Assembly: GCA_009692485.1 (NCBI GenBank) | Contig: SHZB01000013.1 | Location: forward strand, 1-38,063 | Direction of reading: 5' to 3' | Length of the DNA: 38,063 nt | From: Myxococcales bacterium | GTDB taxonomy: Bacteria; Myxococcota_A; Polyangia; Polyangiales; Polyangiaceae | Shown here: positions 11,271-16,080 of the stretch, one piece after another | How positions within the stretch are numbered: the first letter of the stretch is position 1 | How the letters are laid out: every line of letters begins with the position of its first letter | Translations under genes and position numbers: made by a program | Notes under the pieces: model-generated | The model's input: the letters and a program-made list of their open reading frames with translations, nothing else | Told to the model about the DNA's origin: nothing | Database searches by the model: none

Positions 11271-11342
11271 GAGAGCGGCTACACGAGCGGCTTCATGAGC
11301 GGCTAGATGAGCGGCTACGAGTGCGGCTACAGAAGCGGCGCG
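11271..11342. repeat. 12-bp tandem repeat, six units, running into the ygfK-like 3' end
   Basis: Units of the form RnGAGCGGCTAC start at 11271, 11283, 11295, 11307, 11319 and 11331, with small changes. The last two units overlap the final codons and stop of the gene ending at 11327. Because the period is divisible by three, the stop codon (read on the minus strand) recurs in frame in several units downstream of the real stop. The array separates two genes on the same strand. Confidence 0.85.
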
Positions 11343-13458: not shown

Positions 13459-16080
13459 ATGACCGCTGAGCTTGTCTCCGACGCACAAGAGACCGTGAGC
13501 TTCGAGCTCAACGGCAGCCCCGCCACCGTGCTGGTCTTCGAGGGGGAGACGCTGCTGCAGACCTTGCGCGATCGACTGGGGATCACGAGCCCCAAGGACG
13601 GCTGCAGTCCGCAAGGGCAGTGCGGCTGCTGTGTGGTGAACATCAACGGGCAGGGCGTCACCTCGTGCGCGATGTTGACGACGAAGGTCGCGGGCAAGCG
13701 GGTGGTCACCAACGAGGGGCTGCCCGAACAAGAGCGGACCATCATCGCGCGTGCGTTCGCGACCTCGGGCGGTGTGCAGTGCGGCTTCTGCATCCCGGGC
13801 TTCGTCGCTCGGACGGCGGCGATCTTGGGCCGTGACGCGAACCCTTCGCGCGAGCAGATCAAGAAGCAGCTTGGCGTTCATCTATGTCGCTGCACCGGCT
13901 ACGTGAAGATCCTCGATGCCATCGAGCTCGCGGGGGCCGTGAAACGCGGAGAACGCGAGCTGCCTCCACTTTTGACGCAGGCCTGTGGAGTCGGCAAGCG
14001 CCTGCCGAAATACCAGGCGGAGGCGTATGCGCTGGGGGACGTCCCCTATGTCGATGACATGAGCGTGCCGGGGATGCTGCACGGCGCCGTTCATTTGAGC
14101 GAGCATCCGCGCGCGAAGATCCTCCGCATCGACACGAGCCAAGCCGAGGCATTGCCGGGCGTCGTCGTCGTGGCGACGGCCAAGGACGTGCGGGGGCGGC
14201 GGCGCTACGGACTCATCGAGCAGGACTGGCCTAGCTTCGTGGCCGAGGGCGAGACGACCTGCATGGTCGGCGACGTGCTCGTGGCCGTCGCCGCGGTCGA
14301 TCGCCGCACCGCCCGCCGCGCCGCGGAGCTGTGCGTGGTCACCTATGAAGTCTTCGAGCCGATCGTCGATGGCCGGCTGGCCCTCGCGGACGACAGTCCC
14401 ACGGTGCATCCGGGGCGCAAGAATCTGCTGAGCACGTCGGCGTACGTACGTGGCGACGTCGACGCGGCATTGGCCAATAGCGCCTTTGTGGTGAGTGACA
14501 CATTTCGGACGCAGACGATCGAACATCTCTACATGGAGCCCGAGAGCTGCCTCGTCGTGCCCGAGGGCGACAAGCTGCACGTCTACTCGCAAGGGCAAGG
14601 GATCTACGACGATCGGCGCCAGCTCTCGCGCGCGCTCGATTTGCCAGAGGCGCTCGTCGAGGTGACGCTCGTGAGCAATGGCGGCGCGTTCGGCGGCAAA
14701 GAAGATCTCTCGATCCAGGCGCAGACGGCGCTCCTCGCGCAATTGACCCATAAGCCCGTAAAGCTAACCGTCAGTCGCGACGAGTCGATTCGCATCCACC
14801 CGAAGCGCCACCCGCTCGAAATGCATTACACGATGGCGTGCGACGCGAATGGCAAGCTCACCGCCGTCAAGGCGCGCATGCTGGCAGATAGCGGCGCCTA
14901 TGCGAGCGTCGGCGCCAAGGTGGTCGAGCGCGCGGTCGGGCATGCCTGCGGTCCGTACTACGTGCCAGCGGCCGACGTCCTCGGGCAAGCCGTCTATACC
15001 AACAACACGCCCAACGGAGCGATGCGCGGATTCGGGGTGAATCAATCGGCCTTCGCGGTCGAGCAGCTGATCGACCGGCTCGCCGAGAAGTGCGGGCTCG
15101 ACGCCTACCAGATGCGCGAGAGAAACCTCTTGCGCGACGGTGAACGCTTCGGCCCCGGGCAAAAGATGAAGAACTGCGGCGGGCTGTTGCGCACGCTCGA
15201 GGCCGTAAAAGACTGCTTTTATGGCGCAAAGATCGCCGGGCTCGCATGTGGCGTGAAGAACGTCGGGATCGGCAATGGCATGATCGACGTCGGTCGCGCG
15301 CGCATCGATGTCCTCAGTGGCGGGCGCTTGCGGCTCTGTCACGGCATGACCGAGATGGGCCAGGGGCTGCACACGATCGCCATCCAGGTGATGTACGAAG
15401 CGACCGGGCTCGCGCCGCAAGAGGGAGTGACGGTCGAGGTCACGACGGACGATGGGCTTGACTGCGGCATGACCACGGCCTCGCGCGCCACCGTGCTGGT
15501 CGGTAATGCCATGAAGGACGCGGGCGAGAAGCTGCGGGCGGAGCTCGACCTTCTTGGCGGAGAGCTGAGCGCGCTCGCGGGCAAGAGCTATACGGGTGAG
15601 TGGAAGTGCGATTTCACCGTAAAACCGGGGACGCCCGGAGATAACCCCATAACGCACCTGTCCTTCGGCTTTGCGACGCAGGTCGTGCTGCTCGACGAGA
15701 ACACCGGCAAGATCCGCCGCGTCGTTGCGGCGCATGACGTCGGCAAGGCCATCAATCCGACGTTGTGCGAGGGGCAGATCGAGGGCTCGGTGCACATGGG
15801 GCTTGGCTATGCCCTGAGCGAAGAGCTCGTGCTCGAGGGCGGCGTGCCAGTGGATCCGACGATGCGGAAGCTCGGCGTCCTGCGTGCGCACGAGACCCCC
15901 GATATCGAGGTGATCTTGGTGGAGGAGCCAGAGCCTCTCGGGCCCTACGGTGCGCGCGGCGTGGGCGAGATCGGCCTCGTTCCGACGGCGCCGGCGGTGG
16001 CCCAGGCGCTCTACAAGTTCGACGGAAGGTGGCGCACGACCCTGCCGATGCGCGACCACTACGAGAAGCCGAAGCGGTAG
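13459..16080 (+). CDS. XdhD-like molybdenum hydroxylase (2Fe-2S domains fused to Mo domain)
   Basis: An 873-residue xanthine-oxidase-family enzyme. The plant-type 2Fe-2S cluster uses C49, C55, C58 and C70; the second 2Fe-2S domain has CGFC (108-111) and CRC (143-145). After a linker follow the two molybdopterin-binding domains, with GGAFGGKE near 407-414, MRGFG near 520-524 and the catalytic Glu in GARGVGEIG near 832-840. There is no FAD domain, so the layout fits E. coli XdhD-type, selenium-dependent hydroxylases, or Mop-type aldehyde oxidoreductases. The divergent YgfK-like gene favours the XdhD group, which hydroxylates purines or related N-heterocycles. Selenium in that group is a labile Mo ligand, not selenocysteine, so the sequence alone cannot prove it. 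The ATG at 13459 is preferred; the upstream extension reads as non-coding. Confidence 0.88.
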   Translation: MTAELVSDAQETVSFELNGSPATVLVFEGETLLQTLRDRLGITSPKDGCSPQGQCGCCVVNINGQGVTSCAMLTTKVAGKRVVTNEGLPEQERTIIARAFATSGGVQCGFCIPGFVARTAAILGRDANPSREQIKKQLGVHLCRCTGYVKILDAIELAGAVKRGERELPPLLTQACGVGKRLPKYQAEAYALGDVPYVDDMSVPGMLHGAVHLSEHPRAKILRIDTSQAEALPGVVVVATAKDVRGRRRYGLIEQDWPSFVAEGETTCMVGDVLVAVAAVDRRTARRAAELCVVTYEVFEPIVDGRLALADDSPTVHPGRKNLLSTSAYVRGDVDAALANSAFVVSDTFRTQTIEHLYMEPESCLVVPEGDKLHVYSQGQGIYDDRRQLSRALDLPEALVEVTLVSNGGAFGGKEDLSIQAQTALLAQLTHKPVKLTVSRDESIRIHPKRHPLEMHYTMACDANGKLTAVKARMLADSGAYASVGAKVVERAVGHACGPYYVPAADVLGQAVYTNNTPNGAMRGFGVNQSAFAVEQLIDRLAEKCGLDAYQMRERNLLRDGERFGPGQKMKNCGGLLRTLEAVKDCFYGAKIAGLACGVKNVGIGNGMIDVGRARIDVLSGGRLRLCHGMTEMGQGLHTIAIQVMYEATGLAPQEGVTVEVTTDDGLDCGMTTASRATVLVGNAMKDAGEKLRAELDLLGGELSALAGKSYTGEWKCDFTVKPGTPGDNPITHLSFGFATQVVLLDENTGKIRRVVAAHDVGKAINPTLCEGQIEGSVHMGLGYALSEELVLEGGVPVDPTMRKLGVLRAHETPDIEVILVEEPEPLGPYGARGVGEIGLVPTAPAVAQALYKFDGRWRTTLPMRDHYEKPKR

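What the first reader, a model, noticed from the sequence alone, without database searches (positions are those of the whole stretch)
11327..16080. Shortened YgfK paired with an XdhD-like molybdenum hydroxylase
Seen: FMN-barrel part and two ferredoxin-type Cys clusters joined directly, with no GltD-like NAD(P)H/FAD domain (about 659 versus about 1030 residues), divergent from an FAD-less Mo hydroxylase. Known: E. coli ygfK sits near xdhD and selenium-related genes. Inference: electron transfer from a separate reductase or a quinone, and possibly a labile selenium on the Mo centre.
Basis: partly seen in the sequence, partly recalled or inferred. Interest (0 to 1): 0.6.

Follow-up and report, generated by a model that had tools for sequence, protein, structure and literature searches.

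The report
Purine reductase missing its NADH module
A relative of myxobacteria carries a trimmed version of an enzyme that gut bacteria use to break open purine rings, lacking the part that takes electrons from NADH; the same trimmed enzyme sits in purine-breakdown gene clusters of several bacterial phyla, so these bacteria probably power purine breakdown from another electron source.

Summary
A 659-aa YgfK without the GltD-like FeS/FAD/NAD(P)H region (11327-13306, -) diverges from a one-chain, FAD-less molybdenum hydroxylase (13459-16080, +). The short form is a real family: all 80 best loci of a genome-collection scan are short, keep all eight cluster cysteines, and form one branch apart from 5 full-length YgfKs. 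Among 59 related genomes 7 have it, all 7 with this Mo enzyme type (8 have that enzyme). Neighbours in relatives are SsnA, carbamoylases, YgeW and PLP enzymes: the reductive urate pathway published in 2025. The window's genome has SsnA, carbamoylase and PLP enzymes on other contigs. Best reading: a NAD(P)H-independent purine-ring reductase fed through two [4Fe-4S] clusters, most likely by ferredoxin as in clostridial PydAc; the donor is inferred, not shown. The selenium idea is not supported: yqeB is absent from all 7 genomes, yqeC from all 59, and selD tracks selA. The Mo enzyme is not an aldehyde oxidoreductase by family score. 43 of 48 tested short-YgfK genomes carry a COX1-family gene, whereas a 2025 commentary confines the pathway to anaerobes. 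New variant of a known kind.

The parts
11327..13306 (-). Short YgfK: purine-ring reductase candidate, 659 aa, without GltD-like FAD/NAD(P)H region
   Evidence: TIGR03315 416.8 bits over profile 4-412; alignment with full-length forms; model pLDDT 88.9, pTM 0.91
11999..13195 (-). FMN-barrel domain (residues 38-436), fold of dihydroorotate/dihydropyrimidine dehydrogenase
   Evidence: VIA-align Z 24.4 to T. brucei DHODH (291 aligned, 3.1 A) and pig DPD residues 529-933 (292 aligned, 2.9 A); Foldseek best E 1e-9 to DPD. FMN itself is inferred
11885..11917 (-). Cys motif 1 (residues 464-474, C-x2-C-x2-C-x3-C), [4Fe-4S] ligands
   Evidence: All four Cys in 81 of 81 aligned short forms; Pfam Fer4 families
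11702..11734 (-). Cys motif 2 (residues 525-535, C-x2-C-x2-C-x3-C), [4Fe-4S] ligands
   Evidence: All four Cys in 81 of 81 aligned short forms
13307..13458 (.). Divergent intergenic region between the two genes (152 bp)
   Evidence: Start sites; no sigma-70-like match here; no Rfam match in the window
13459..16080 (+). One-chain FAD-less molybdenum hydroxylase, 873 aa, TIGR03311 type
   Evidence: 911.1 bits, cut-off 830.45; Pfam Fer2_2, Ald_Xan_dh_C, MoCoBD_1, MoCoBD_2
13708..13926 (+). Fer2_2 part of the [2Fe-2S] domain
   Evidence: PF01799, residues 84-156
14407..15129 (+). Molybdopterin-binding domain 1, with Glu415 and Arg491 (positions of the xanthine-dehydrogenase substrate residues)
   Evidence: PF02738; residues in 40 of 40 aligned relatives of the clade
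15238..15900 (+). Molybdopterin-binding domain 2
   Evidence: PF20256, residues 594-814

Best explanation
The pair encodes the two redox enzymes of a reductive purine (urate-type) degradation pathway. The FAD-less Mo enzyme adjusts the oxo groups of the purine (hydroxylation or dehydroxylation). The short YgfK then reduces the dioxopurine at an FMN in its barrel, so that SsnA can open the ring; carbamoylases and PLP lyases finish the job. YgfK has lost the module that takes electrons from NAD(P)H, so electrons enter its two C-terminal [4Fe-4S] clusters directly from a soluble low-potential carrier, most likely ferredoxin, and pass to FMN. Shown here: domain loss, conserved cluster ligands and barrel, DHOD/DPD fold, linkage and co-occurrence with pathway genes. 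Inferred: substrate, direction of the Mo enzyme, ferredoxin as donor.
For: Short YgfK and the over-cut-off TIGR03311 enzyme co-occur in 7 of 7 short-YgfK genomes among 59, 1 other genome having the Mo enzyme (Fisher 2e-8, not corrected for kinship). Around 80 short-YgfK loci: SsnA in 42, Mo enzyme 41, PLP enzymes 34, YgeY/M20 33, YgeW 17; in the 27 loci with at least 8 kb on both sides: 20, 19, 17, 19, 8, and 25 have at least one pathway gene. The window's genome has SsnA (369.7 bits, cut-off 455.5), both PLP enzymes (73% and 59% identity to relatives' copies that lie in the clusters), the M20 carbamoylase (380 bits, cut-off 204) and a D-hydantoinase (598 bits, cut-off 393). E. coli YgfK and XdhD-YgfM do these chemistries in vitro (PMC12507026; abstract, passages and Results part 1 of 3 read). 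Clostridial PydAc, which also lacks the FAD/NADPH domains, accepts electrons from ferredoxin (PMC7332683; abstract and passages read). All eight cluster Cys are invariant in 81 of 81. A POR-type (2-oxoacid:ferredoxin oxidoreductase family) gene is in G000 and in 6 of the 7.
Against: No donor gene is conserved beside the short YgfK. POR is only weakly enriched (6 of 7 vs 28 of 52, p=0.11) and was not found in G002 (67% complete). PydAc keeps two ferredoxin domains, the short YgfK only one. In the window's genome the pathway genes lie on several contigs, and only the two redox genes are in the window. SsnA is below its curated cut-off. D-hydantoinase also occurs in congeners without YgfK, so it may serve pyrimidines. 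The substrate is not proven; the active site of the Mo enzyme differs from that of E. coli XdhD. YgeW and nitrilase were not sought genome-wide in G000.
Confidence: 0.55

Rival explanations
1. The two enzymes are each other's redox partner: the Mo enzyme oxidises one purine and its electrons go, directly or through a shared carrier, to YgfK, which reduces another, so that ring opening needs no NAD(P)H at all.
For: Both proteins lack a flavin/NAD module; 7 of 7 co-occurrence; divergent neighbours in the window and in G002. 28 of 29 loci with the one-chain Mo enzyme have no FAD subunit nearby. The Mo enzyme keeps mammalian-XDH-type Glu/Arg in 40 of 40 relatives, as would suit an oxidising purine hydroxylase.
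Against: 12 of 41 loci have another Mo enzyme type, 10 of these with an FAD subunit, beside the same short YgfK. Direct adjacency is rare: in the other loci the matches are 0.9-10 kb apart. No complex was tested.
Confidence: 0.15
2. A separate NAD(P)H reductase (GltD-like, ferredoxin-NADP reductase or other) reduces the short YgfK as a dissociable subunit.
For: Bacterial PydA and PreAT are often split into two ORFs (PMC7332683, passages read). Other genomes in the set do have GltD-like proteins.
Against: GltD-like sequence in 0 of 80 loci. For G000 no match to TIGR03315 better than about 6e-12 besides the short YgfK is listed, and the best E of G001, G003, G004 is 1e-7 to 3e-7 (only part of the first-look candidates was scored). 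Ferredoxin-NADP reductases were not sought.
Confidence: 0.2
3. One reading: a selenium-dependent Mo hydroxylase with labile selenium, YgfK being part of selenium metabolism.
For: NCBIfam names the best family 'selenium-dependent xanthine dehydrogenase'; selD is in the genome. One related genome, G033, has the same Mo type with YqeB and a full-length YgfK.
Against: YqeB in 0 of 7 short-YgfK genomes, YqeC in 0 of 59. selD and selA are present or absent together in the 7 (4 with, 3 without). Haft and Self found TIGR03309 (YqeB) only with selD and proposed it as the marker of such enzymes (PMC2276186, parts 1-2 of 4 read).
Confidence: 0.06

Closest known systems
E. coli YgfK (TIGR03315), NAD(P)H-dependent yanthine (2,8-dioxopurine) reductase
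   Same: Median 39% identity of the best tblastn piece over the 80 loci, same C-terminal Cys motifs, same partners SsnA and Mo hydroxylase
   Different: Short form lacks about 450 residues (FeS entry, FAD, NAD(P)H); separate branch, SH-aLRT 99, 81 vs 5 rows
C. difficile UacX and clostridial PydAc (dearomatising reductases without FAD domain)
   Same: Same logic: FMN barrel plus ferredoxin-type clusters, no NAD(P)H module (PMC12507026 and PMC7332683, passages read)
   Different: UacX is assigned to PF01180; the window protein has no PF01180 hit at E<=0.001, so the same loss seems to have happened in another family. UacX sequence was not compared directly. PydAc is reported mainly from Clostridiales
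TIGR03311 'selenium-dependent xanthine dehydrogenase'
   Same: Over curated cut-off, one chain, no FAD domain
   Different: No YqeB/YqeC found in the host; the type occurs in genomes where selD was not found
Dehydrogenase X1 of Barba et al. 2013 (PMC4016543, abstract and one section read)
   Same: A dihydroorotate-dehydrogenase-superfamily gene clustered with ssnA, hyuA, ygeW, ygeY, xdhABC homologues
   Different: X1 is a clade beside PydA/PreA in a tree built from PyrD, PreA and PydA, and the section says E. coli has no X1, although E. coli has YgfK

Membership tests
YgfK (NCBIfam TIGR03315 equivalog) | Score over curated cut-off | tested here: not met
   416.8 vs 835.3 bits
YgfK (NCBIfam TIGR03315 equivalog) | N-terminal barrel part | tested here: met
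   Profile 4-412 matched; DHOD/DPD fold
YgfK (NCBIfam TIGR03315 equivalog) | GltD-like FAD/NAD(P)H region | tested here: not met
   Absent in the window protein and 0 of 80 loci by tblastn
YgfK (NCBIfam TIGR03315 equivalog) | C-terminal [4Fe-4S] motifs | tested here: met
   8 Cys in 81 of 81
Selenium-dependent XDH (TIGR03311) | Score over curated cut-off | tested here: met
   911.1 vs 830.45
Selenium-dependent XDH (TIGR03311) | Selenium-maturation markers YqeB and YqeC in the genome | tested here: not met
   G000 is 85.9% complete, but 0 of 7 (YqeB) and 0 of 59 (YqeC)
Selenium-dependent XDH (TIGR03311) | Labile selenium at the Mo centre | not testable with these tools
   Needs protein
XdhD / Se_sel_red_Mo (TIGR03313) | Score over curated cut-off | tested here: not met
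   246.4 vs 1101.9
Aldehyde oxidoreductase | Score over the curated cut-off of an aldehyde family | tested here: not met
   NF045668 433.9 vs 1100, PaoC NF041671 169.6 vs 1180. In solved structures the best sequence hits are nonetheless aldehyde oxidoreductases 1sij/1dgj, which share the one-chain FAD-less layout
Xanthine dehydrogenase-type active site | Glu and Arg at bovine 802/880 positions (numbering and role recalled) | tested here: met
   Glu415 and Arg491 align with Glu and Arg of 4yrw; in 1sij the first position is Phe, the second Arg; both kept in 40 of 40 relatives
UacX/PydAc-type ferredoxin-dependent reductase | PF01180 barrel | tested here: not met
   No hit at E<=0.001
UacX/PydAc-type ferredoxin-dependent reductase | No FAD/NAD(P)H domain | tested here: met
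UacX/PydAc-type ferredoxin-dependent reductase | Activity with reduced ferredoxin | not testable with these tools
   Needs assay
Reductive urate pathway | SsnA, carbamoylase and PLP lyase genes in the same genome | tested here: inconclusive
   All found in G000, but SsnA is below its cut-off (369.7 vs 455.5) and the PLP enzymes are not YgeX-type by NCBIfam

The most novel reading that the evidence does not exclude
A NAD(P)H-free reductive purine pathway is widespread in respiring bacteria of about nine phyla: a one-chain Mo hydroxylase and a GltD-less YgfK form a self-contained redox pair in which purine hydroxylation pays for purine-ring reduction, so that ring opening is redox-neutral.
Probability: 0.12. 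Interest if true: 0.78.

Novelty: new variant of a known kind. Interest (0 to 1): 0.5.

Why it matters
[quoted passage not shown] Here a matching gene set with a NAD(P)H-less YgfK appears in other phyla, and 43 of 48 tested genomes carry a COX1-family gene. If right, the donor question becomes testable with a family that has no pyridine-nucleotide module to confuse the assay. It also shows that the name 'selenium-dependent' is carried into genomes where selD was not found.

Tried and rejected
Selenium reading: rejected on yqeB, yqeC, selD and selA profiles. Stand-alone GltD partner: nothing strong listed for G000 or its congeners, none near 80 loci. Truncated pseudogene or assembly artefact: rejected, since congener G002 has the same length at 81% identity and all 80 database loci are short. 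Aldehyde oxidoreductase: rejected on family scores and tree; only PaoC stood for that class in the tree, and its branch is very long. Ferredoxin support through POR genes: weak, p=0.11. Solved-structure search by sequence with YgfK: no hit; fold search gave DPD and DHOD. Promoter/terminator scan: nothing in the intergenic region. Rfam: no match. E. coli XdhD Glu606 has no counterpart in the window enzyme. The genome paper on Paraliomyxa had none of the words aerobic, oxygen, purine or ferredoxin. Several neighbour clusters were taken as antisense shadow ORFs and dropped from the gene maps; the counts do not use those clusters but tblastn with named references. The neighbour survey covers 80 of 360 confirmed loci, the best matches to the window, so it is biased to short forms; 53 of the 80 have under 8 kb on at least one side.
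Full report
What is there. The window is a whole contig (G000:C179) of a 4.13-Mb, 277-contig genome rated 85.9% complete; the nearest database record is a 'Myxococcales bacterium' genome bin. The minus-strand gene at 11327-13306 encodes 659 residues; the plus-strand gene at 13459-16080 encodes 873. They diverge from a 152-base gap. The start sites agree with those of congener G002, where both genes stand in the same arrangement (81% and 85% identity).

The short YgfK. It scores 416.8 bits against TIGR03315, half the curated cut-off, because the profile's middle is missing. Aligned with four YgfKs of the full-length type from related genomes, it lacks one block that holds the FeS entry domain, the FAD and the NAD(P)H domains, and it rejoins at the C-terminal Cys motifs (one of the four, G019, is cut by its contig end). 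E. coli YgfK is 1032 residues. A model made with 48 relatives has mean pLDDT 88.9 and pTM 0.91. Residues 38-436 match dihydroorotate dehydrogenases (Z 24.4, 291 aligned, 3.1 A) and the FMN part of pig dihydropyrimidine dehydrogenase (Z 24.4, 292 aligned, 2.9 A), so a flavin site for ring reduction is a fair inference.

It is a family, not an accident. One scan of 84,980 species genomes matched 393 stretches; 360 were confirmed relatives and the best 80 were kept. All 80 have a short YgfK frame; a tblastn search with the GltD-like part of E. coli YgfK finds nothing in any of the 80 loci. Record titles and taxonomy name Myxococcota, Acidobacteriota, Planctomycetota, Marinimicrobia, SAR324, Elusimicrobia, KSB1, Eisenbacteria and Pseudomonadota. 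On a tree of the barrel part, 81 short and 5 full-length rows fall on two sides of one branch (SH-aLRT 99); five full-length rows, one with a long branch, are few. The eight cluster cysteines and Cys97, Cys215, Cys373 are present in 81 of 81.

Its partners. In 59 related genomes the short form occurs in 7 and the Mo enzyme over the TIGR03311 cut-off in 8; the 7 all lie within the 8. In four of the 7 the two genes lie on different contigs, so this is not mere linkage. The eighth, G033, has a full-length YgfK and the only over-cut-off YqeB. In relatives the pair sits with SsnA-like amidohydrolases, M20 carbamoylases, two PLP enzymes, a nitrilase-like protein (my reading of its sequence, no family search), YgeW and carbamate kinase. 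Counts over 80 loci: Mo 41, SsnA 42, PLP 34, YgeY/M20 33, nitrilase-like 18, YgeW 17, carbamate kinase 12, hydantoinase 2, FAD subunit 11, YqeB-like 2, YqeC 0; over the 27 loci with at least 8 kb on both sides: 19, 20, 17, 19, 11, 8, 4, 1, 7, 1, 0. Of the 41 Mo enzymes 29 are of the window's type; 12 are another type, 10 of them with an FAD subunit nearby.

The window's own genome has the rest: SsnA at C169:7366-8691, PLP enzymes at C169:12599-14056 (73% identical to G044's) and 14062-15327 (59% to G016's), the M20 carbamoylase at C9:20305-21519 (63% to G016's) and a D-hydantoinase at C4:2969-4330. The strong M20 type (368-433 bits) is in 6 of the 7 short-YgfK genomes, while the three congeners without YgfK have only a weaker one (266-271 bits); G054 has none. 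The hydantoinase is not specific: congeners without YgfK have it too.

What it does. In E. coli XdhD-YgfM reduces urate to 2,8-dioxopurine (yanthine) with NADH, and YgfK with NAD(P)H dearomatises yanthine for SsnA; C. difficile has UacX without an FAD domain and XdhD without YgfM, for which ferredoxin is proposed (PMC12507026; abstract, passages and Results part 1 of 3 read). Clostridial PydAc, a pyrimidine reductase without FAD/NADPH domains, works with reduced ferredoxin (PMC7332683; abstract and passages). The short YgfK looks like the same solution reached in the YgfK family. I therefore read it as a NAD(P)H-independent purine-ring reductase fed by ferredoxin or a similar carrier. G000 has one POR-type gene and 6 of 7 short-YgfK genomes have some, but so do 28 of the other 52, so this supports the donor only weakly.

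The Mo enzyme. TIGR03311 is by far its best family. Its 41-row clade stands apart from E. coli XdhA, XdhD and PaoC (SH-aLRT 100). Glu415 and Arg491 align with Glu and Arg of mammalian xanthine dehydrogenase that bind the substrate (roles recalled; alignment) and are kept in 40 of 40 clade members, while XdhA, XdhD and PaoC differ at both; XdhD's Glu606 has no counterpart. Against this, the best solved-structure hits by sequence are the one-chain Desulfovibrio-type aldehyde oxidoreductases (1sij, 1dgj), which have Phe instead of the Glu but keep the Arg (1sij). Purine is thus the likely substrate class, but the direction of the reaction is open.

Selenium. selD is present in G000, with one in-frame TGA, and selA too; in the seven short-YgfK genomes both are present in G000, G002, G016, G056 and both absent in G042, G044, G054. 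YqeB is in none of the seven, YqeC in none of 59. Haft and Self proposed YqeB as the marker of labile-selenium Mo hydroxylases (PMC2276186, parts 1-2 of 4).

Oxygen. 43 of 48 short-YgfK genomes tested (7 G genomes and the genomes of 41 of the 80 loci) have a COX1-family gene, G000 included. The family also includes nitric-oxide reductases (recalled) and rings in facultative E. coli, so this shows respiratory capacity, not that the pathway runs in air. It still contrasts with the statement that the pathway is restricted to anaerobes (PMC12990295, part 1 of 2).

Novelty. In the held library the word ygfK is in 62 papers, of which I saw 40 in the listing, and yanthine in 2; further searches showed no description of a GltD-less YgfK. 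The original paper on the C. sporogenes pathway did not turn up in the library and was not read. I call it a new variant of a known kind, interest 0.5: the pathway and the domain-loss logic are known; the family, its spread and its pairing with an FAD-less Mo enzyme seem not to be.

Noticed in passing
L051:9768-11249, L071:12599-14056, L073:1440-2906: A 486-493 aa PLP enzyme with only weak cysteine-synthase similarity recurs near short YgfK (33 of 80 loci) beside a threonine-synthase-like PLP enzyme; E. coli YgeX matches only 3 of the 80 loci. The pair may replace YgeX.
   Followed up: partly
L087:14519-15466: A nitrilase-like protein (21 of 80 loci) recurs in these clusters where hydantoinase is nearly absent (2 loci), suggesting another way to remove the ureido groups.
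   Followed up: partly
G042, G044, G054: NCBIfam TIGR03311, named selenium-dependent xanthine dehydrogenase, is over its cut-off in genomes where selD was not found.
   Followed up: yes
L062:12541-14526: A LutB/LldF-type iron-sulfur protein lies close to a full-length YgfK in G026, a possible electron-transfer partner.
   Followed up: no
window 17179-18195: Weak AurF-like di-iron protein (23.7 bits, below cut-off 29.6) after a TetR regulator at 16277-17071; no similar protein in the corresponding stretch of congener G002.
   Followed up: no
G000:C17:8183-9109: selD match with one in-frame TGA, as in most selD hits of the group: probably a selenocysteine-containing SelD.
   Followed up: no
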